In this document: in pieces, positions 29,152-38,003 of the stretch
Layout: each line of letters opens with the position of its first letter
Position numbering within the stretch: the stretch's first letter is position 1
From: Thermococcus sp. 21S7
GTDB lineage: Archaea > Methanobacteriota_B > Thermococci > Thermococcales > Thermococcaceae
Assembly (NCBI RefSeq): GCF_012027615.1
Contig: NZ_SNUT01000006.1
Span: 62,001 to 126,000, forward strand
DNA: 64,000 nucleotides
Direction: 5' to 3'
The notes under the pieces: generated by a model
Told to the model about the DNA's origin: nothing
The model's database searches: none
Seen by the model: the letters and a program-made list of their open reading frames with translations, nothing else
Translations under genes and position numbers: made by a program

Positions 29152-30081
29152 ATGAGAGACACCATAAAACAGAAAATTCTTAGTGTAAAAGCGCATTGGA
29201 ATAATAAGATATGGTGGAAAGATGTTATGATAGATCACATTTCTAAGATAGTGTACCCTACGAATAATGGTTTCTATGTACTCTCAGAAGATTGGGATTA
29301 TTTAATAATACTAGATGCTTGCAGGTTTGATATTTTCAGTACAGTCATTAAACAAAGCAAACTATATCACTTAGGCAAGTTAGAGTATAGAATCTCAAGG
29401 GGATCTATGACTGCAGAGTTCCTTATCGAAAACTTCAGCAGAGAAAAATTCGAGGATATTATATACATAACTGCAAATCCATTTGTAGATATGCTTCTCA
29501 AAGGACGATTCTATAAAATAGTCTCAGTATGGAAGGATGGATGGAATGAAGAACTAAAAACTGTACATCCACGTGACGTTTACACATATGCTATTAGAAC
29601 CATCGAGAAATACCCCACAAAACGCTTTATAATCCACTTTATGCAACCACACTTCCCATATTTAACATTCAGACCGCAAGAGGATACGGGTTTTTCGCAA
29701 CATCGAGAAGCTGCATTAAACGGCAAAGAAACATGGGAAGACCAGACAATATGGAACCTAGTTCAGGAAGGCAGAGTTCCTCTAGAACGTGTTATTAAAG
29801 CATACACGGAAAACCTGAGAATTGCACTTGAATATGTAGAAAAGCTTGTAACATATTTAGATGGAAAAATAGTAATAACCTCAGATCATGGAGAAGCTTT
29901 TGGAGAGCCATTTCACAAATTAATACCTCTGAAGATATATGGTCATCCTAGAGGAACAAGAATAGAACCATTAGTCAAGGTACCGTGGTTTATTATAGAG
30001 AAGCCAAGACAAAAGAAAAATCCCGAAGCCCTTAAAGTACAAAAAGCAATCAAAAACCTAAAACTCAAAGGCAAAATCTAA
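29152..30081 (+). CDS. Alkaline-phosphatase-superfamily (sulfatase-like) protein
   Basis: 309 residues with the metal-site motifs of the sulfatase/phosphoglycerol-transferase fold: YLIILDACRFDIF (~49-61, first Asp and probable nucleophile region), FIIHFMQPHFPYL (~160), VITSDHGEAFGE (~240) and IYGHPRGTRIEPLVKVPW (~260). No signal peptide, so it probably acts in the cytoplasm or at the inner membrane face. May add or remove a phospho- or sulfo-group on glycan intermediates. Translated from a strong site, GGAGGTG. It converges with the flippase gene with a 4-base overlap. AT-rich like the three genes upstream. Confidence 0.75.
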   Translation: MRDTIKQKILSVKAHWNNKIWWKDVMIDHISKIVYPTNNGFYVLSEDWDYLIILDACRFDIFSTVIKQSKLYHLGKLEYRISRGSMTAEFLIENFSREKFEDIIYITANPFVDMLLKGRFYKIVSVWKDGWNEELKTVHPRDVYTYAIRTIEKYPTKRFIIHFMQPHFPYLTFRPQEDTGFSQHREAALNGKETWEDQTIWNLVQEGRVPLERVIKAYTENLRIALEYVEKLVTYLDGKIVITSDHGEAFGEPFHKLIPLKIYGHPRGTRIEPLVKVPWFIIEKPRQKKNPEALKVQKAIKNLKLKGKI

Positions 30082-31607
30082 ACAAACCTCTCCAAAATCC
30101 TCTTTACAACCTTTAAATCAACCCCTACTCTTTTCTCTATTACCAGAAGCAGCTCAACGTCCTCCATATCGATGCTCCTGCTCAGGAGAACCAGGATCAG
30201 GTACATCCCAGTGAAAACAACCAAGATAGGAACCGCATACCAGATGCTTGAAACTCTCAAGTGCAATCCCATGACCAGCCCCAGCAGAACAAAACCAATA
30301 ACCAGCGACTTAAGATAGCTCCAGCCAAATGGGTGTATCCGGGTTTTCTGATAAAGCCTGAGGGAATTCAAAACGTTAGTTACAAAATATGACGCTGTAG
30401 TGGCGATGGCCGCGCCCTCGATACCGTAGCGGGGTATCAACAGGGCGTTCAGGGCCACGTTTATTCCCGCCGATAGTAGGGTGGAATACATTATGAAATT
30501 GCTTTCCTTGATAACAATTAAACTCCAGCCGTTCAGCCCCAAAAGCGTGTGGAACATAAAGCCCAAAGCCAGAATTTGAAGCACTGGAGCCGCTGAAAGG
30601 TACTTGGGCCCAAAGAAGAGGTTTATGGTGGCCTCGGGAAATAGAAAGATCAAAGCAAACAGCGGAAAAGTAGCCAGGAATATCCATTTAGTCAGGATTT
30701 GATACACCCTGTTGAGCTCATCAATTTTTCCGTGGGCGTAGAGGACGGTGGCCAAAGGCGGAAAAATCAATCCCGCAGAATTCAAGAATACTGGTAAGAG
30801 CTTGGCGATCGGAGCGGCACCGTTATACAGACCAACAACATCAGAACCCAGATAGTACCCAAGCATCAGAGTATCCGTCCAGGTCATGACGAAACCAGCG
30901 ATACCTGTCAGCATGAGGGGGATTGAAAATTTAATCAGCTCTTTTCCAAGCTTTGAATTTAGAGAAACCCCAAACTTAAGCAGGTCATCTTTCCAGATAC
31001 TAACCATCAAAGCCAGAAATGCCAGGCCCCAAGCGGCAACGTGGGCACCAAAAACAAACGCAAACGGGAACCTCAGAAACGCTCCCACCACAACAAAGAC
31101 CATGAAGAGCACAGGATAAACAATATTCTGGAAATACACCTGCTCCCTGACCCTTCCAAAGCCCCTCGATACTGAGATAATGACCCCGGCCAGCGCCCAG
31201 AATGGGAGGGCAAAGACCGCGATTCTCAGTGCCCCTACCAACCGCTCATCACTGAAGAGCCGCGAGATGCTTTCCGCGCCGGCGAAGAGTATGGCAGTCC
31301 AGAATATGCTGTTCACTGCAACAATCACCAGTGCCGTTGAAATCAAATCCCCGACCTTTGATGGTTCCCTCTCCCTGTAAAAGGCAACCTCTCTAGGCAG
31401 AGCGTTCTGAAAGCCGAGCGTCGCTATTACAAGGGCAATGTTCAAAACGGTCAGAGCTAGATTGAAAACCCCGTACTCCCCAGTGGAAAAATACCTCGCT
31501 ATCACTGCCCTGCTGAGGAATCCAAAGAACATCGAGATAACCGTTCCAGCAAAAACAATTCCCGTTCCCCTGGCGATCTTCTGCAGGGCCTGGCTTGCCT
31601 CGCTCAT
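30078..31607 (-). CDS. Polysaccharide flippase (Wzx/MATE-like)
   Basis: Predicted to flip lipid-linked oligosaccharide across the membrane. About 12-14 hydrophobic helices over 509 residues; the N-terminus SQALQKIARGTGIVFAGTVISMF is the typical entry into helix 1 of the polysaccharide-biosynthesis flippase family, and TWTDTLMLGYYLGSDVVGLYN (~235) is a family landmark. GC is higher than in the four genes on its left. ATG 31607 has GGTGA five bases upstream. Its first ~45-70 bases, with or without this ribosome-binding site, recur at 32549, 34516, 36809 and 37919, marking the module boundaries of the inserted region between it and rmlD. Confidence 0.9.
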   Translation of the reverse strand: MSEASQALQKIARGTGIVFAGTVISMFFGFLSRAVIARYFSTGEYGVFNLALTVLNIALVIATLGFQNALPREVAFYREREPSKVGDLISTALVIVAVNSIFWTAILFAGAESISRLFSDERLVGALRIAVFALPFWALAGVIISVSRGFGRVREQVYFQNIVYPVLFMVFVVVGAFLRFPFAFVFGAHVAAWGLAFLALMVSIWKDDLLKFGVSLNSKLGKELIKFSIPLMLTGIAGFVMTWTDTLMLGYYLGSDVVGLYNGAAPIAKLLPVFLNSAGLIFPPLATVLYAHGKIDELNRVYQILTKWIFLATFPLFALIFLFPEATINLFFGPKYLSAAPVLQILALGFMFHTLLGLNGWSLIVIKESNFIMYSTLLSAGINVALNALLIPRYGIEGAAIATTASYFVTNVLNSLRLYQKTRIHPFGWSYLKSLVIGFVLLGLVMGLHLRVSSIWYAVPILVVFTGMYLILVLLSRSIDMEDVELLLVIEKRVGVDLKVVKRILERFV

Positions 31608-31622
31608 GGGGGTCACCTTTTT
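31567..31622 (-). repeat. Flippase 5'-end repeat, copy A (functional gene start)
   Basis: Reference copy: start codon, first codons and ribosome-binding site of the flippase. 44 bases (31567-31610) are identical to 34516-34559; 25 bases (31598-31622) are identical to 36809-36833. Confidence 0.9.
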
Positions 31623-31660
31623 TGCATCTTTTGCATCATTATTGCTTCATTTTTGCATCA
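31618..31660. repeat. Tandem short repeat upstream of flippase start
   Basis: TTTTGCATC-type units recur four times (one as ATTGCTTCA) between the flippase ribosome-binding site and the end of the PIN gene, encoding the last residues of that protein. A different but similar tandem block occurs at 36831-36871, at the same place relative to copy E. Confidence 0.7.
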
Positions 31661-32145
31661 CTGGCATTGTACATTCTTTTCAGCTCTTCAACGACTTTAT
31701 TGCTGAAACGGACACCCCTGGCTCTTAACTCCCCTATTATAAGTTCCAGATCTTCGTTTATTATCCCCTTCTTCTTCGCGATAAAGAGAAGAGCCAGACT
31801 CCCAGCAACATTCAGCCCGAGAGACTTGGCAATAATCCGGGGGATTTTCTCATCCAGAATTATCAGGTCAGCATTGAGTTCTTTAGCGAGGACTATCGCC
31901 TCGGCCTCTCCGACTTCAATTTCCCGCGTGAGGATTTCAACGCTCAGCTTATCCTTAACCTCCAAAACTCTAATCCAGGTTGCGTTCTTAACGTCTTCAG
32001 AGCCGGGCTTTCCTTTTCCTCTCTCCACAACCTCAACCCAGACTGCCCTCGGAGTTATAACCTCTCCAAAAAGCTCATTAAGAATGTTCAGTTTCCTGAC
32101 CTTGGCCAGTGCCATTAACGGCCCCGAGTCAGAGACAACTATCAT
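31639..32145 (-). CDS. DUF3368 PIN-like toxin
   Basis: 168 residues with the DUF3368/PIN pattern: VVSDSGPLMALAKVRKLNIL at the N-terminus (catalytic Asp in SDSGP), a Glu-rich middle (VGEAEAIVLAKELN, ~95) and LIILDEKIPRIIAKSLGLNV (~110-130) with the second acidic site. Family members pair with UPF0175 antitoxins, as here; the ATG overlaps the antitoxin stop by 4 bases. The last residues come from a tandem repeat and may be extra. Probably an RNase toxin; not proven. Confidence 0.83.
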   Translation of the reverse strand: MIVVSDSGPLMALAKVRKLNILNELFGEVITPRAVWVEVVERGKGKPGSEDVKNATWIRVLEVKDKLSVEILTREIEVGEAEAIVLAKELNADLIILDEKIPRIIAKSLGLNVAGSLALLFIAKKKGIINEDLELIIGELRARGVRFSNKVVEELKRMYNASDAKMKQ

Positions 32146-32402
32146 AACAACCTCTCCAGGGTCTCAATGTCCTCCTTCAAGTCCTCTTCGTTGTACTGGA
32201 GGGGTATTCCTTTTGACGTCAGAATCTCCATCATCTCCCACCTGCTCACCCCTGCAATCTCCGCAGCTTTACCGAGGCTGACTATGCCCTCACGGTAAAG
32301 CTCAAGGGCAAGGTAAATTCTAACAGTCTTAGGGAGCTCCTTTCCACTAACCCTTAAAATTCTCGCCAGATCCTGGGGAAAGGAAACCAGAATTTCATTC
32401 AT
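32142..32402 (-). CDS. UPF0175 antitoxin
   Basis: 86 residues. A ribbon-like N-terminus (ILVSFPQDLARILRVSGKE) is followed by the UPF0175 helix-turn-helix YREGIVSLGKAAEIAGVSRW (~36-55) and the GIPLQYNEEDLKEDI tail that binds the toxin. Transcribed with the DUF3368 gene from a TATA-like GTTTTTAATGCC near 32432-32443. Normally binds its own promoter and neutralises the PIN partner. Confidence 0.87.
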   Translation of the reverse strand: MNEILVSFPQDLARILRVSGKELPKTVRIYLALELYREGIVSLGKAAEIAGVSRWEMMEILTSKGIPLQYNEEDLKEDIETLERLL

Positions 32403-32458
32403 TTCTCACACCATAAAGATTGTGAACATGTGGCATTAAAAACATATCGTCCTCTTAC

Positions 32459-32497
32459 TGACCTCCTCACCCTGAAGGGCGAGGCTTGCAAAAAAGA
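32459..32497 (-). repeat. Dispersed T-run/GC hairpin element, copy b (inverted)
   Basis: Read on the minus strand: T-run, then AAGCCTCGCCC-TTCA-GGGTGAGGAGGTCAG. The changes relative to copy a keep the stem paired. Confidence 0.6.
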
Positions 32498-32548
32498 AAA
32501 ACCGGATCAGGTTCTTTCTTTTATAGTTCTGAACCAGTGTTAACACTA

Positions 32549-32605
32549 TTCCCTGTCTGAAGAGCCTGACCTGCCTCGCTCATGGGATTCACCTGTAATT
32601 ATGCT
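32549..32605 (-). repeat. Flippase 5'-end repeat, copy B (decayed)
   Basis: On the minus strand it reads CATAATTACAGGTGA, then a flippase-like start ATGAGCGAGGCAGGTCAGG, continuing with a 14-base deletion into sequence resembling codons 15-22 of the flippase. No open frame follows. Confidence 0.75.
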
Positions 32606-32718
32606 GTTTTTTCCTTCCCCAAAATTGCCACCTATGTTTGGAAGTACCCAAAGAGTGACCACTATTTCTGGGAGGATGTTGAATACTATGCCCGTTTTGG
32701 ACTGGAGATTGTGGTGGA
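32606..32718 (+). pseudogene. Remnant of a second copy of the 36148-type gene
   Basis: 32606-32649 resembles the promoter-side block 36055-36099. Then 32656-32718 is identical for 63 bases to 36366-36428, inside the unknown gene (codons for DHYFWEDVEYYARFGLEIVV). The ~265 bases between are deleted, and an insertion-element end follows directly. It shows the 36148 module was once duplicated. Confidence 0.8.
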
Positions 32719-32786
32719 GTGGGAGGGGGAAGGTTAGCCGTAACGACGTTTACGAACTTTACACAAGTTACGGCTAACCAGAACGG
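32719..32786 (+). mobile_element. Solo right end of the TnpB element
   Basis: 32730-32786 is identical to 35943-35999, the last 57 bases of the intact element, including the 13-bp stem GGTTAGCCGTAAC/GTTACGGCTAACC with a 22-base loop. The rest of tnpB is gone. The flank after AGAACGG differs from that of the intact element, so this was a separate insertion, within the duplicate of the 36148-type gene. Confidence 0.85.
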
Positions 32787-32849
32787 TTCCTTTTTCAATT
32801 GTATGATGGCTTTGAGCCCTGTAACACATGATCGGGGCATAAATTTGTA

Positions 32850-32880
32850 GAACAACCGTTAACTTTTTTAACTGTTGTTC
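32850..32880. promoter_or_regulatory. Operator-like inverted repeat of the AbiE pair
   Basis: GAACAACCGTTAA and TTAACTGTTGTTC are 13-base arms with one mismatch around CTTTT. A TATA-like CATAAATTTG lies at 32838-32847, so the repeat spans the expected transcript start. AbiEi-type antitoxins are known to bind inverted repeats here. Confidence 0.6.
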
Positions 32881-32894
32881 CACAAACTGAAAAC

Positions 32895-33524
32895 ATGAAC
32901 ATCGCAGTGCGGTTCATCCTGTCCAGATACGGTGGAAAAGTCGTCACGAAAGAGGAACTGGCCGAGATATGCGGCAGATTTGGGGTTAACCTCGATTATC
33001 TGGTGCATCATCTTATATCCTATGGCTACGCGGTCCGCATTCTCAGGGGACTCTACTATGTAAAGACCGTTGAAGAGTTCAAGCTGAAGAAGGCTTTAAA
33101 ACCGCTGGAGGTTATCGGGCTTGGGTTGAACAAACTTGGCATGAAATGGTACTACGGCCTGTTTACAGCCCTTAGATTAAACGCCCTCACACATGAGTAC
33201 TTCACTAAGATATTTGTCCTGAACGACGGGATTTACCGTTCAAAGGCCATAAAGATTTACGGGGAAGACGTCGAGTTCATAAGAATCAAACCCAAACTTT
33301 TGGAGTTTGGCGTAGTGGAGCGGGGGGAGATAAGGTATTCAGATGTGGAAAAGACCCTCCTGGACTTTCTGTACCTCTCGCGGTACAATCCAAAGCTTAG
33401 AATCACTGCAAAAAACGTCCTGGGGGAGTATTGGGACAGGGTAAACAAAGAAAGGATACACGAATACCTCAAACATTACCCCCACTCACTGAAAGGGGTG
33501 CTTGAGGATGAGGGACTACTCTGA
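32895..33524 (+). CDS. AbiEi-like antitoxin
   Basis: 209 residues. N-terminal winged helix (VVTKEELAEICGRFGVNLDY, then LRGLYYVKT) followed by the AbiEi C-terminal domain (GMKWYYGLFTALRLNALTHE, EKTLLDFLYLSRYN). In type IV systems it represses its promoter and counters the AbiEii nucleotidyltransferase. It overlaps the abiEii start by 17 bases, so the two are coupled. A large inverted repeat lies at its promoter. Confidence 0.83.
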   Translation: MNIAVRFILSRYGGKVVTKEELAEICGRFGVNLDYLVHHLISYGYAVRILRGLYYVKTVEEFKLKKALKPLEVIGLGLNKLGMKWYYGLFTALRLNALTHEYFTKIFVLNDGIYRSKAIKIYGEDVEFIRIKPKLLEFGVVERGEIRYSDVEKTLLDFLYLSRYNPKLRITAKNVLGEYWDRVNKERIHEYLKHYPHSLKGVLEDEGLL

Positions 33525-34437
33525 GTTCATCCAGTTGATAGCCGAGAAGAGCAAAATTGGGAAGCCTGATTTGATTGAGAGGGATGTAATCCTGCACACA
33601 ATCCTGAAAAGAATGTATTCTAGCAACTATTTCGCCCAGAACTACATTTTCAAGGGCGGAACCTGCCTGGTTAAATGCTATTTCGGCTACTACCGCTTCA
33701 GCGTTGACCTCGACTTCACCTTTATGAATCAGGAAAAGTGGGGAGGGCTCTCAAAGAGAAGCAGAAGAAAAGCTCTCGTTGGGGAGGCACAAAAAGTTGG
33801 CGACCTAATTGAAGCTATTGCCGGCTACATAGGTCTTGAGTTCAATGCCGAACTGCAGAACAGGCGGTACGTGGAGTTTGGAAGCGGTTCAAAGATGGTG
33901 ACTTATAAACTGTACCATCCCTGTAAAGAGGGAGGCATGATAAAGGTTCAGGTCAATCTAGTTGAAGACATTATCTTTGAACCAAGAAGACTTACGGCAA
34001 GAACCCTTCTAAGCGGGATTTCATTGTCCGAAAACGACAAGCTGTATTTCTACGATTTCCTCGATGATTATTCTGAAGTCGAAGTCCTCGCTTATGACCC
34101 GAGGGAGATCCTGGCCGAGAAAGTCAGGGCAATTCTAACCCGGAGAGTTCAAAAATTAAGGGATTTCTACGATCTGTACCTGTTATACCAGCATGGTTTA
34201 AGAATAGCCGACTACAAAGACGAGATTATCAGGAAGGTTGTTTCGGCCATGAATTATGAGAAGTACAGAGAGAATCTCAGAAGGAACAGGAATCTATTTA
34301 ACGCAGGGTTTAATGTTAGGGATGAATATGAGGTTTACCTGCTGAACACCAAAGTGGATAAGGGATTCACAGAGTTCCTTGACCAGACGGTTGAAGATAT
34401 TGGTAGAATCCTTGATGAAATAAAAATATATCCCTGA
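33508..34437 (+). CDS. AbiEii-like nucleotidyltransferase toxin
   Basis: 309 residues of the AbiEii/MenT family. The catalytic motif is FKGGTCLVKCYFGYYRFSVD followed by LDF (~49-72), i.e. GG-x-LD-x-D. Later come DPREILAEKVRAILTRRVQK (~200, with the KLRDFYDLYLL helix that follows) and a long helical C-terminus. The family transfers nucleotides to tRNA or other targets to stop growth. Unlike the remnant at 18421-18617, all core motifs are present. Start ATG 33508 is set by GGGGTG 8-13 bases upstream. Confidence 0.85.
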   Translation: MRDYSEFIQLIAEKSKIGKPDLIERDVILHTILKRMYSSNYFAQNYIFKGGTCLVKCYFGYYRFSVDLDFTFMNQEKWGGLSKRSRRKALVGEAQKVGDLIEAIAGYIGLEFNAELQNRRYVEFGSGSKMVTYKLYHPCKEGGMIKVQVNLVEDIIFEPRRLTARTLLSGISLSENDKLYFYDFLDDYSEVEVLAYDPREILAEKVRAILTRRVQKLRDFYDLYLLYQHGLRIADYKDEIIRKVVSAMNYEKYRENLRRNRNLFNAGFNVRDEYEVYLLNTKVDKGFTEFLDQTVEDIGRILDEIKIYP

Positions 34438-34515
34438 AAAATTTTCCAGTAACACACTAACATTTTGATAGAGCGGGATTAATAATCAGCATAATGGAGA
34501 AAAAACAGCTCCATC

Positions 34516-34559
34516 CCCTGGCGATCTTCTGCAGGGCCTGGCTTGCCTCGCTCATGGGC
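34516..34559 (-). repeat. Flippase 5'-end repeat, copy C
   Basis: Forty-four bases identical to 31567-31610 (start codon and first 12 or so codons of the flippase). The TnpB element is inserted directly at its right side; the continuation (TCACCTGTAACTATG) resumes at 36001. Confidence 0.9.
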
Positions 34560-34654
34560 TGTTCTTTAGTCGGTAACTTTCGTAACTTTTGTTGGTTTTT
34601 GTTAGCACAAGGTTTAAATATTCCTACTTAGTATTCTTTAAGTGGTAGTTAGTA

Positions 34655-34819
34655 ATGCCTAAAGCAACTTTCGTCATCAGTGAAGAAACCCTTGAGGAGT
34701 TCAAAAAACTCGCCAAAAAACGTTATGGAGACAAAAGAGGAGTCCTAAGCGTTGCAATTGAAGAAGCCATCAAAGATTGGATTAAGAAAACAAAAAAGGA
34801 GCTGGAAAATGCCGAGTGA
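34655..34819 (+). CDS. Ribbon-helix-helix protein encoded upstream of tnpB
   Basis: 54 residues: a beta-ribbon start (KATFVISEETLEEFKKLAKK), then a GDKRGVLSVAIEEAIKDWIK helix pair, as in CopG-like DNA-binding proteins. Transcribed from a TATA-like GGTTTAAATATT near 34611-34622. It overlaps the tnpB start by 11 bases, so translation is coupled. Likely represses the element's promoter; a role in controlling TnpB or guide RNA is possible but unproven. Confidence 0.75.
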   Translation: MPKATFVISEETLEEFKKLAKKRYGDKRGVLSVAIEEAIKDWIKKTKKELENAE

Positions 34820-35990
34820 AACCATCAAACTCACGGCAAAATTCAAACTCAAAGAAACACCCGAAGGGTTAGATGAGCTTTTCGAAACTTATCGTGAAAT
34901 CGTGAACTTTCTCATCACTTATGCTTTTGAAAACAACATCACCAGCTTTTACCGGCTGAAAAAGGAGACTTACAAAAGCCTTCGGAGGGGATATCCAGAA
35001 CTGCCAAGCCATTACCTTTACACGGCTTGTCAAATGGCAATAGCAATCTTCAAAAGCTTTAGAAAGCGGAAAAAGAAGGGTAAAGCTAAGGGAAAGCCTG
35101 TTTTTAAGAATGAAGTCATCATGCTGGACGACCACTTGTTCAAGCTCGACTTGGAGAATAAAACCGTAAAACTCTCCACTCCGAATGGGAGGACTCAGTT
35201 AGAGTTTTATCCCGCAGAATACCATGAGCGGTTCAAGGATTGGAAGGTCGGGCAGGCTTGGTTAGTTAGAACGCCGAAGGGACTCTTCCTAAACGTAGTC
35301 TTCTCTAAAGAAGTTGAGGTTAAAGAGCCTAAAGCCTTTGTTGGCGTGGATTTGAACGAGAACAATGTAACCCTTTCCCTCCCGAATGGAGAGTTTATCC
35401 AGATAATCACTCACGAGCGTGAAATCAGGACTGGCTACTTCGTGAAGAGGCGAAAAATCCAACGGAAGATTAGGACTGGAAAGAGGAGGAAAGAACTCCT
35501 CGAAAAATACGGGCGGAGGGAAAGGAACAGGCTTAACGACCTTTACCATAAACTCGCCAATAAAATCGTCGAGCTGGCGGAAAAATATGGTGGGATTGCT
35601 TTAGAGGATTTAACGGAAATCAGGGAGTCAATCAGGTATTCGGCTGAAATGAATGGTCGCCTTCACCGTTGGAGTTTTCGGAAGCTTCAATCACTCATCG
35701 AATACAAGGCGAAATTAAAAGGTGTTAAGGTTGTTTTCGTGAATCCTGCTTACACTTCTTCCCTGTGCCCGGTATGTGGGGGTAAGTTAAGCCCGAATGG
35801 GGGCAGGGTTGTGAAGTGTTCGAATTGTGGGTTTGAAGCTGACAGGGATGTGGTTGGGAGTTGGAATATTCGTTTAAAAGCCCTGAAGATGTGGGGAGTC
35901 ACCGTTCCCCCCGAAAGCCCCACGATGAAGAAGGGAGTGGGAAAGGTTAGCCGTAACGACGTTTACGAACTTTACACAAGTTACGGCTAA
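34809..35990 (+). CDS. tnpB: TnpB RNA-guided nuclease
   Basis: 393 residues, full length for the family. N-terminal helical region with LPSHYLYTACQMAIAIFKSF (~58-77). RuvC-like core with the first Asp in VGVDLNEN (~180), Glu in IALEDL (~265) and Asp in EADRDVVGSWN (~352). The zinc finger CPVC/CSNC sits between the last two. All three catalytic acids are present. The frame is open further upstream, but ATG 34809 inside the RHH gene is the domain start. The 3' end lies within the right-end hairpin, as expected if the transcript also yields the guide RNA. Confidence 0.93.
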   Translation: MPSETIKLTAKFKLKETPEGLDELFETYREIVNFLITYAFENNITSFYRLKKETYKSLRRGYPELPSHYLYTACQMAIAIFKSFRKRKKKGKAKGKPVFKNEVIMLDDHLFKLDLENKTVKLSTPNGRTQLEFYPAEYHERFKDWKVGQAWLVRTPKGLFLNVVFSKEVEVKEPKAFVGVDLNENNVTLSLPNGEFIQIITHEREIRTGYFVKRRKIQRKIRTGKRRKELLEKYGRRERNRLNDLYHKLANKIVELAEKYGGIALEDLTEIRESIRYSAEMNGRLHRWSFRKLQSLIEYKAKLKGVKVVFVNPAYTSSLCPVCGGKLSPNGGRVVKCSNCGFEADRDVVGSWNIRLKALKMWGVTVPPESPTMKKGVGKVSRNDVYELYTSYG

Positions 35991-36015
35991 CCAGAACGGG
36001 TCACCTGTAACTATG
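35943..36015 (+). ncRNA. Predicted 3' part of the TnpB guide (omega/re) RNA
   Basis: The 13-bp stem at 35945-35957/35980-35992 and the element end at 35999 form the scaffold. The following ~16 bases (GTCACCTGTAACTATG) would be the guide, taken from the flank. The first 7 guide bases match flippase copies A and E. Inferred from known TnpB elements. Confidence 0.45.
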
Positions 36016-36147
36016 ATGGCTTTAATAAATCAGCACATGTGGCTTAATACTTCCAGGTTTTTCTCCTTCCCAAAATTGCCACTATGTTTGGAAGGTCCCA
36101 CGAAAAGCGTTATAAATTTAACTCAATGACATGACCTAGGATAATTC

Positions 36148-36672
36148 ATGCCGCTTGTAATAGCCATTGATGAAAGCAGCAGAGCAGCTGCAATTGTAAT
36201 AGTCGAGTACAATGACCTCCCCAAAATTGCAAGGGAGTTTAGGGGAATAAGACATTTTAGGGAGGTCAAAAGAAACAGAAACCGGTATTTAAAGGACGAG
36301 TTTAAGCCAAGGCTGGAAAAAGCCGTGAGGAAATACCGCCTTGAGCTTAGGTACTACTCCAAGATTGACCACTATTTCTGGGAGGATGTTGAATACTATG
36401 CCCGTTTTGGACTGGAGATTGTGGTGGATGATAAACTCTGGAGGGCTGTTGTGGATAGATTCGGAGATATGCAGATCTCAATTGCAAAGGAAGGCGATAT
36501 TGCTCCAGCCATAGAAGAGTTAAAACAAAAGCTTTGGAGAGCAGGGAAGGAAAAAGATGTTTCCATTCAAAAGCAAATTGAGAAAAAGCTGGAGTATTAC
36601 CTGCAGAGGAAAATCCTGATAACAATAGCCGATAATTACGTTAATCTCCGGAGAAGAGGGCTAAAACATTAA
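36148..36672 (+). CDS. Unknown 174-residue protein, possibly nuclease-like
   Basis: I do not recognise a family. The start MPLVIAIDESSRAAAIVIVEY is a hydrophobic strand with D-E-S, then a second strand, as at the start of RNase H-like folds or DUF3800-type proteins. The rest is charged and helical: NRNRYLKDEFKPRLEKAVRK, DHYFWEDVEYYARFGLEIVV and QKQIEKKLEYYLQRKILITI. A TATA box (TTATAAATTT, 36110-36119) gives a nearly leaderless transcript. A 63-base identical fragment of a second copy sits at 32656. It occupies the place taken by toxin-antitoxin pairs in the other modules. Confidence 0.6.
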   Translation: MPLVIAIDESSRAAAIVIVEYNDLPKIAREFRGIRHFREVKRNRNRYLKDEFKPRLEKAVRKYRLELRYYSKIDHYFWEDVEYYARFGLEIVVDDKLWRAVVDRFGDMQISIAKEGDIAPAIEELKQKLWRAGKEKDVSIQKQIEKKLEYYLQRKILITIADNYVNLRRRGLKH

Positions 36673-36770
36673 AAAGAACCAGAGACACACCCGCTCATCT
36701 GCCCCCTCCTGTCATCGGACGGGCTTCACAGGGGAGCGGGCGAAACATTCTGCCTAATACTGTCTCCAGT

Positions 36771-36783
36771 ATCTATTATAGAT
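36771..36783. promoter_or_regulatory. Perfect ATCTATTATAGAT palindrome
   Basis: A 6-bp-arm palindrome between the unknown gene and flippase repeat E. Function unknown. Confidence 0.25.
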
Positions 36784-36808
36784 TCGTCCCTTTTAACCTT
36801 TTGGGTCA

Positions 36809-36833
36809 CCTCGCTCATGGGGGTCACCTTTTT
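36809..36833 (-). repeat. Flippase 5'-end repeat, copy E (short)
   Basis: Twenty-five bases identical to 31598-31622: ribosome-binding site, start codon and first codons. Beyond codon 4 the sequence diverges. Confidence 0.85.
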
Positions 36834-36871
36834 GACTCATTTGACTCATGGTTGACTCATATTTGACTCAT
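36831..36871. repeat. Tandem TTTGACTCAT repeat next to copy E
   Basis: Four units of TTTGACTCAT or close variants. They encode the last residues of the winged-helix fragment on the minus strand. Same position relative to the flippase repeat as the TTTTGCATC units at 31618-31660. Confidence 0.75.
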
Positions 36872-37061
36872 GGGGAGTCTTTAGTTTATACCTGCCTTTT
36901 TCAACACGCTCGAAAATTCCCAGTTTAACCAGAGCACTAAGATCCCTTGTAGCCGTTATCCTTGAAACTTTAAACAGCTCCCGATATTCTTTATTTGTTA
37001 TACTGCCTTTCCCCTTCACATAGAGTACTATCCTGAAATTATGAAAATCAGAGGATTCTCT
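36846..37061 (-). pseudogene. C-terminal winged-helix fragment of a Fic/Schlafen-type protein
   Basis: The open minus-strand frame has no start and encodes GSITNKEYRELFKVSRITAT followed by RDLSALVKLGIFERVEKGRY. This is the DeoR-like winged helix that ends many Fic-domain and AlbA_2/Schlafen-like proteins. The N-terminal catalytic part is missing. It lies 11 bases after the DUF2283 stop and ends within the tandem repeat. Confidence 0.6.
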
Positions 37062-37071
37062 TCAATTCCAT

Positions 37072-37452
37072 CTAGACACTGATAGAAGTGACTACCGTGG
37101 GAAGGCCGACGTTTGCCATTTCCAGTACCCTTGAGCGCTCACGTTCCTTTTTTCTCTGGACTACAACTATTGAAATCATCATTTCAACCCGGTCCTCGCT
37201 GATCTTGATCTCCGCATGGAGCCTCCTAATGTTCCTGAGCAGGCCTTTGTCCAATCCAAACTTCTCGGATGCCCCAAGTATCTCAAAACCGATGACGTCC
37301 AGCTTATCCCCATCCGAAAGCCGGCCAAAGTCAAGAATAACATCATCCCCAAGCATAACAGAATGCTCATACTTACCCTCCGGCACCACTACAAAGAGTG
37401 AATCGACAAGGGGGTCGTAATCCATGGGCCTGAACTCAATCTTCTCTCCCAT
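37072..37452 (-). CDS. DUF2283-like protein, likely antitoxin partner
   Basis: 126 residues. The N-terminal half fits an enlarged DUF2283 domain (YDPLVDSLFVVVPEGKYEHS, then KLDVIGFEILGASEKFG), the rest is helical and basic. Longer than the other two copies in this window (71 and 74 residues). AGGTGA precedes ATG 37452, within the overlapping end of the DUF4258 gene (17-base overlap). Pairing suggests a toxin-antitoxin role. Confidence 0.68.
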   Translation of the reverse strand: MGEKIEFRPMDYDPLVDSLFVVVPEGKYEHSVMLGDDVILDFGRLSDGDKLDVIGFEILGASEKFGLDKGLLRNIRRLHAEIKISEDRVEMMISIVVVQRKKERERSRVLEMANVGLPTVVTSISV

Positions 37453-37768
37453 ATTCTTTCACCTTCGTTCTCCTCTTGGAGGGTTGCGGAAACACCGTCA
37501 CCACGATTAATTTTAATTTGCTCTTAACATGCCTTGCATCCACTATTATTATCAGGTCCTTATCCTCAGTATACGCGTAATACAGCTTAAACCTCCCCTC
37601 AGGCTCTTGCTGGAGCACACCTCTGAGTCTCTGTGGGTTATAAAGCAGCTCTTCCACCAAATCCTTTGAGATTCCCCTAATCTGAAGGCGATATTCACAG
37701 TGATGGGTAACTGTAACCTCAGAGATGCTTTTGGACCTCAACAGAGCCACGAACTTGGTGAAATCCAT
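37436..37768 (-). CDS. DUF4258-like protein, likely toxin partner
   Basis: 110 residues with the DUF4258 core: VTHHCEYRLQIRGISKDLVE (~19-38), LLYNPQRLRGVLQQEPEGRF and LYYAYTEDKDLIIIVDARHV, then a basic tail. It precedes its DUF2283 partner, the same order as in the other two pairs. It starts about 160 bases downstream of the decayed flippase 5' copy F, with GAAGGAAC as a weak ribosome-binding site. Confidence 0.68.
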   Translation of the reverse strand: MDFTKFVALLRSKSISEVTVTHHCEYRLQIRGISKDLVEELLYNPQRLRGVLQQEPEGRFKLYYAYTEDKDLIIIVDARHVKSKLKLIVVTVFPQPSKRRTKVKEYGRED

Positions 37769-37918
37769 GTTCCTTCGAATATTATACCCAAACCAAGCAT
37801 TTAAATATTACGTTTTTGGAAGCCTCTTCTTTCAAAAAAGCAACGTAAAGACCAGAGCTTTGCTTAGGAGGACTCATGAGCCTTTCCCACGTGACAGACC
37901 AGAAAGCATTGAACCTGC

Positions 37919-38003
37919 ATCCAGGCAAAGACTATTCCCGTCCCCTAGCGGTCTTCTGCAGGGCATGACAGCCTCGCTCATGGGGGTCCCCCGTAATTAT
38001 GGG
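37919..38003 (-). repeat. Flippase 5'-end repeat, copy F (ancestral position, decayed)
   Basis: On the minus strand, 28 bases after the rmlD stop: CCATAATTACGGGGGACCCC, a start ATGAGCGAGGC, and then similarity to the flippase over about 70 bases (CCCTGCAGAAGA, GGGACGGGAATAGT, TTTGCCTGG). Frameshifted and unable to encode the protein. Its position suggests the flippase gene originally followed rmlD directly. Confidence 0.75.

What the first reader, a model, noticed from the sequence alone, without database searches (positions are those of the whole stretch)
34560..36015. TnpB element inserted exactly in a flippase-start repeat; its guide would resemble sister repeats
The element splits copy C between CTCATGGG and GTCACC. 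Its predicted guide therefore starts GTCACCTGTAACTATG and its target-adjacent side is CATGGG. Copies A and E carry the same CATGGG and the first 7 guide bases; B and F match partly. RNA-guided cutting at these sister sites could trigger recombination among the repeats and help build or reshuffle the array.
Basis: inference. Interest (0 to 1): 0.62.

Follow-up and report, generated by a model that had tools for sequence, protein, structure and literature searches.

The report
Repressor-bearing TnpB element in flippase-start repeat
A small jumping gene in a heat-loving archaeon sits exactly in one of several copies of a repeat; it belongs to a known family but carries a probable repressor gene where its transposase should be, and its RNA-guided cutter is unlikely to cut the sister repeats as first proposed.

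Summary
A 1,441-bp element (34559-35999) splits a flippase-start repeat between CATGGG and GTCACC, and A and D share only 7 guide bases. Junctions, TnpA-bearing sister copies and 31/33 GGG flanks identify it as IS607-family, so CATGGG is a plausible TAM. The proposed mechanism is not supported. The sister sites carry 2-5 mismatches within guide bases 1-13 (B also lacks GGG). A characterised IS607 TnpB tolerates almost none there. 17 other Thermococcus genomes carry flippase-start arrays, and none of the fetched stretches holds this TnpB family. (1) In 15 copies from 10 genomes tnpA is replaced by a 54-aa CopG/ribbon-helix-helix-like ORF. Both left arms occur interspersed on the TnpB tree, so they are swapped in front of tnpB; a plasmid homologue sits upstream of a replication gene, which suggests an autorepressor. 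(2) The identical repeat position was hit again, in another species (a 267-bp derivative) and, by inference, by a fossil copy at 32726-32789 in this window. (3) The array is a genus-wide site of module exchange. Verdict: new variant of a known kind.

The parts
34559..35999 (+). whole IS607-family element (RHH type), CTGTTCTTTAG...CCAGAACGG
   Evidence: ends fixed by comparison with about 35 sister elements
34553..34558 (+). CATGGG, target-adjacent side (TAM-like; GG = IS607 core)
   Evidence: 31/33 sister insertions flanked by GGG, 2 by GAG; IS607 TnpA inserts at (G)GG (PMC6188088)
34559..34654 (+). left end, repeated GTAACTTT motifs, TATA-like GGTTTAAATA
34655..34819 (+). 54-aa CopG/ribbon-helix-helix-like ORF in the place of tnpA
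   Evidence: weak Pfam RHH_6 E 0.002 and RHH_1 E 0.004, both below cut-off; CopG E 0.1; 52% id to plasmid pTI1 RHH protein; 85-100% id in 15 copies
34809..35990 (+). tnpB, 393 aa, RuvC residues D181/E266/D347 and zinc ribbon intact by alignment
   Evidence: NF040570 guided_TnpB 194 bits, cut-off 100; Pfam; structure alignments
35888..35999 (+). omega-RNA scaffold (overlaps 3' end of tnpB); final CGG pairs with an upstream CCG
   Evidence: 38-row alignment with compensatory changes in two stems; no Rfam match
36000..36019 (+). predicted guide GTCACCTGTAACTATGATGG
   Evidence: sequence directly after AACGG
34514..34558 (.). repeat C, left half (antisense start of a flippase remnant), 45/45 identical to copy A
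31566..31618 (.). repeat A, start of the intact flippase gene (ORF 30078-31616, minus)
32542..32602 (.). repeat B
32726..32786 (+). fossil right end of a second IS607 copy (55/55 identical to this element's right end) abutting TTCCTTTTTCAATT, the right half of another repeat; its left half is deleted
36802..36833 (.). repeat D
37941..38001 (.). repeat E

Best explanation
This is a non-autonomous IS607-family element that entered one flippase-start repeat by ordinary GG-dinucleotide recombination. It kept tnpB, the omega-RNA and both ends, but its left arm with the serine transposase has been exchanged for a left arm with a small CopG-like protein, most likely a repressor of the RHH-tnpB operon. 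It is presumably moved in trans by TnpA of sister copies present in the same genome (presence shown; mobilisation inferred). TnpB with the guide GTCACCTGTAACTATGATGG most likely acts on the element's own empty site: the excision scar and the uninterrupted allele on sister chromosomes or in incoming DNA. It thereby retains or homes the element at this locus and does not cut the diverged sister repeats (inferred). The repeat array does not depend on the element.
For: Sister copies in the same genome carry an IS607-type HTH + Resolvase TnpA in front of 88-90% identical TnpB. GG core, no target duplication, constant ends (PMC6188088). Catalytic residues intact and omega-RNA stems covary. 15 RHH-type and 27 TnpA-type copies, never both in one element. 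The two left arms are interspersed on the TnpB tree: at least 4 changes forced by starred branches, 9 by parsimony. The RHH gene is more alike than the tnpB beside it, e.g. 93% against 75% and 95% against 74%. The plasmid RHH homologue lies just upstream of a replication gene. Sister repeats mismatched in guide 1-13 against the stringency in PMC11061315. Arrays elsewhere without this TnpB.
Against: The TAM and mismatch tolerance of this archaeal TnpB are not measured; ISFba1 is a distant relative with another TAM (AGGAG). Same-position insertion in two or three repeats is not predicted by GG targeting alone. The RHH assignment is below Pfam cut-offs, the monomer fold search found nothing, and no conserved operator was identified. 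Expression is unknown.
Confidence: 0.7

Rival explanations
1. One reading: the guide directs TnpB to cut sister repeats, triggering recombination that builds or reshuffles the array.
For: TAM compatible. B and E are the best guide matches in the genome apart from one unrelated site. A and C left halves are identical over 45 nt, a sign of recent exchange. The same position is occupied again at X (32726-32789) and in another species.
Against: 2-5 mismatches in guide 1-13 at each site and no GGG at B; stringency of a known IS607 TnpB; arrays in 17 other genomes without this TnpB in the fetched stretches.
Confidence: 0.1
2. The repeat is a true hotspot for IS607 elements of this genus: TnpA, or local DNA features such as the G-run next to the ribosome-binding site, favours this position, or elements home into it when arrays are exchanged between strains.
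For: Window C; G026 267-bp derivative with CATGGG|...|TTCACC; fossil X. Rough Poisson estimate, noncoding-only model: 0.008 expected, P of two or more about 3e-5.
Against: Estimate is post hoc and rough, with an assumed noncoding fraction. X is inferred from one side only. Other insertions show no consensus beyond GGG. IS607 shows no further target preference. Dispensable island DNA collects insertions anyway.
Confidence: 0.4
3. A dead, TnpA-less remnant without function, carried passively in a defence/toxin island.
For: No tnpA in the element; decayed copies in the same genome.
Against: Both ORFs open, catalytic residues intact, omega-RNA pairs kept. The RHH type has several copies at different sites within one genome (G003 four, G000 three), so it moves or has moved recently.
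Confidence: 0.18

Closest known systems
IS607 family (IS607, ISC1926)
   Same: GG target, no target duplication, tnpB downstream; sister copies have the HTH + serine recombinase TnpA
   Different: this copy and 14 others lack tnpA and carry a CopG-like ORF in its place
ISFba1-type IS607 TnpB with RAGATH-18 reRNA (PMC11061315)
   Same: IS607-associated, about 390-aa RuvC nuclease; guide starts at the right end, G-rich TAM beside the left end
   Different: inferred TAM GGG (rarely GAG) instead of AGGAG/GAGGG; no Rfam hit to its RNA; far below the NCBIfam IS607_TnpB cut-off (42 against 350 bits)
IS200/IS605 TnpB (ISDra2)
   Same: RNA-guided nuclease with guide from the flank
   Different: no Y1 transposase seen beside tnpB; GG core and serine recombinase instead
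CopG-type plasmid copy-control repressors (pLS1 CopG; RHH protein of Thermococcus indicus pTI1)
   Same: small RHH-like protein directly upstream of the gene it presumably controls
   Different: here the downstream gene is tnpB, not a replication gene; regulation untested
TnpB gene drive on plasmids (PMC11870625)
   Same: model for guide-directed retention and spread at the identical empty site
   Different: there IS200/IS605 elements on plasmids; here a chromosomal locus, untested

Membership tests
IS607 | serine recombinase TnpA with N-terminal HTH | tested here: not met
   absent from this copy; present in 27 sister copies (example L051: Resolvase E 4e-26, HTH_17 E 2e-12). Filed as an IS607-derived, TnpA-less element.
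IS607 | insertion at GG(G) with no target duplication | tested here: met
   31/33 GGG, 2/33 GAG (G at -1 in all); CATGGG+GTCACC agrees with the uninterrupted repeats
IS607 | ends shared with TnpA-bearing copies | tested here: met
   all begin CTGTT and end CAGAACGG; the interior of the left end differs between the two types
RNA-guided TnpB | RuvC D/E/D and zinc ribbon; family score over cut-off | tested here: met
   NF040570 194 bits against 100; D181, E266, D347
RNA-guided TnpB | conserved structured RNA ending at the right end, guide from the flank | tested here: met
   covarying stems in 38 sequences; transcription not testable
RNA-guided TnpB | guide-directed cleavage | not testable with these tools
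   needs biochemistry
IS200/IS605 | Y1 transposase | tested here: not met
   the gene in front of tnpB is a serine recombinase or the RHH ORF in the 42 copies with an intact left arm
TldR (nuclease-dead TnpB) | loss of RuvC catalytic residues | tested here: not met
   D181/E266/D347 present
CopG/ribbon-helix-helix | RHH sequence and fold | tested here: inconclusive
   Pfam E 0.002-0.004 below cut-off, CopG E 0.1, two-helix model of moderate confidence, no fold hits; homologue annotated RHH

The most novel reading that the evidence does not exclude
In Thermococcus, tnpB is a fixed core on which two exchangeable left arms are swapped: a transposase arm and a CopG-like copy-control arm, giving a self-limiting nuclease element with plasmid-style regulation. 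Such elements home repeatedly into the start-of-flippase repeat that is also the genus-wide exchange site for toxin-antitoxin modules.
Probability: 0.25. Interest if true: 0.72.

Novelty: new variant of a known kind. Interest (0 to 1): 0.45.

Why it matters
If right, TnpB elements can trade their transposase for a repressor and still spread, which shows a route by which RNA-guided nucleases separate from transposition. The conserved repeat with repeated same-site insertions gives a natural test of TnpB homing in a polyploid archaeon.

Tried and rejected
Rfam gave nothing for the right end. An inverted repeat in front of the RHH ORF looked like an operator in two copies but is not kept in the others, so I dropped it. 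Fold search with the RHH monomer gave no meaningful hit; the strand would form only in the dimer. The 224-bp derivative in G017 (L161) is 1.7 kb from the repeat and not in it. A second G026 copy (L234) that looked flanked by TTCACC is flanked by CTGACC, outside the array. Most genus-wide hits to CAGAACGG-n-TCACC and GCTCAYRRG-n-CTGTT are unrelated coding sequence. The RHH scan of genome contigs gave only one further Thermococcus MAG and a distant Aenigmatarchaeota hit. Literature searches showed no report of an RHH-bearing IS607/TnpB element, and one search none of the flippase-start array; the library is incomplete.

Full report
What is there. The element runs 34559-35999: left end CTGTTCTTTAG, a 54-codon ORF (34655-34819), tnpB (34809-35990), and a right end GGTTAGCCGTAAC...GTTACGGCTAACCAGAACGG. 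It interrupts copy C of a repeat that is the antisense start of a flippase gene (MSEASQALQKIARG...) with its ribosome-binding site (GGTGA). The insertion lies between the start codon and that site.

What family it is. TnpB scores over the NCBIfam guided_TnpB cut-off. Two sister copies in the same genome (C4:215220, C5:16104) carry an HTH + Resolvase transposase of IS607 type directly in front of a TnpB 88-90% identical to this one. About 45 homologous elements were found in the genus. Their left flank ends GGG in 31 of 33 usable cases and GAG in two, with no further consensus. Their right end is nearly always CAGAACGG. This agrees with the (G)GG targeting without duplication shown for IS607 (PMC6188088). 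The TAM inferred from these flanks is therefore GGG, compatible with CATGGG. The right-end RNA has two stems with compensatory changes in 38 sequences, and its last CGG pairs with an upstream CCG.

Guide and sister sites. The guide is GTCACCTGTAACTATGATGG. Mismatches within positions 1-13: A 8, 10-13; D 8, 10-13; B 1, 12 (flank ATGGGA); E 4, 7, 12. Apart from the element's own site, B, E and one unrelated site (C2:384284) are the only sites within three mismatches of GGG+16 nt in the genome. For ISFba1, a characterised IS607 TnpB, single mismatches at 1-13 or any TAM change abolish or impair cleavage (PMC11061315). Cutting of sister repeats is therefore unlikely, though not measured for this enzyme. 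The natural target is the identical empty site. Thermococcus is polyploid (own knowledge), so homing between chromosome copies is plausible.

The array without TnpB. The same repeat occurs in many of the 61 genus genomes (29 match the joined-flank query, most of them in the repeat itself), often in 2-7 copies 1-3 kb apart. In 18 fetched stretches from 17 other genomes there is no TnpB of this family; one distant homologue occurs, in L155. Module genes homologous to those of the window (PIN, AbiE, DUF2283/DUF4258 pair, the 36148 gene) lie between copies in different combinations, next to flippase and rmlC/rmlD genes. Flippase remnants are cut at differing codons. The array does not need the element.

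The left-arm swap. 15 copies in 10 genomes have the 54-aa ORF in place of tnpA; 27 have an intact tnpA; none has both. On the TnpB tree the types are interspersed, with at least four changes forced by well-supported branches. The small ORF is more alike between copies than tnpB (e.g. 93% against 75% DNA identity). So left arms have been exchanged at the start of tnpB. The ORF is CopG/RHH-like by weak sequence evidence. Its plasmid homologue precedes a primase/polymerase gene on pTI1. An autorepressor is inferred, not shown.

Same-position insertions. In genome G026 a 267-bp internally deleted element with a TnpA-type left end sits at CTCATGGG|...|TTCACC of a flippase-start repeat; a related copy (94% identical) lies elsewhere in that genome, so this is most likely an independent insertion. 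In the window, a fossil right end at 32726-32786, identical over 55 nt to this element's, abuts TTCCTTTTTCAATT..., which aligns with a repeat leader (score 23.5, best of 500 shuffles 15). I read it as a second insertion at the same position whose left side was deleted. A rough estimate with insertion confined to an assumed 10% noncoding DNA expects 0.008 such insertions in the genus. This is post hoc; I call it suggestive. Its cause (target preference, homing, or exchange of arrays) is open.

Verdict. Observation confirmed; TAM argument supported; sister-site cutting and array building not supported; new variant (RHH in place of TnpA) of a known kind.

Noticed in passing
31566-38001; L147-L164, L205: Genus-wide array: remnants of the flippase gene start separate toxin-antitoxin and other small modules, with recurring leader sequences directly after the flippase ribosome-binding site; module order differs between species.
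   Followed up: partly
L205:5679-5938 (G026:C1:1093672-1093946): 267-bp internally deleted IS607 derivative at the same position of a flippase-start repeat in another species.
   Followed up: yes
32542-32820: Repeat B followed by a fragment of a gene like 36148-36672 fused to the 3' end of a lost IS607 copy.
   Followed up: partly
L006/L059 (G000:C2:191504-191615): A tnpB remnant followed directly by a very short (about 59-bp) element-like piece with left-end-like and right-end sequences in tandem.
   Followed up: no
L155:5204-5869: A distant TnpB homologue (26% identity) inside another species' array stretch.
   Followed up: no
L242 (Thermococcus indicus pTI1): Plasmid RHH protein, 52% identical to the element's small ORF, directly upstream of a primase/polymerase gene.
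   Followed up: partly
contig ends C2, C3, C5, C7, C10, C12 of G000: Several contigs of this assembly break inside copies of this element, so copy number and some left flanks are undercounted.
   Followed up: no
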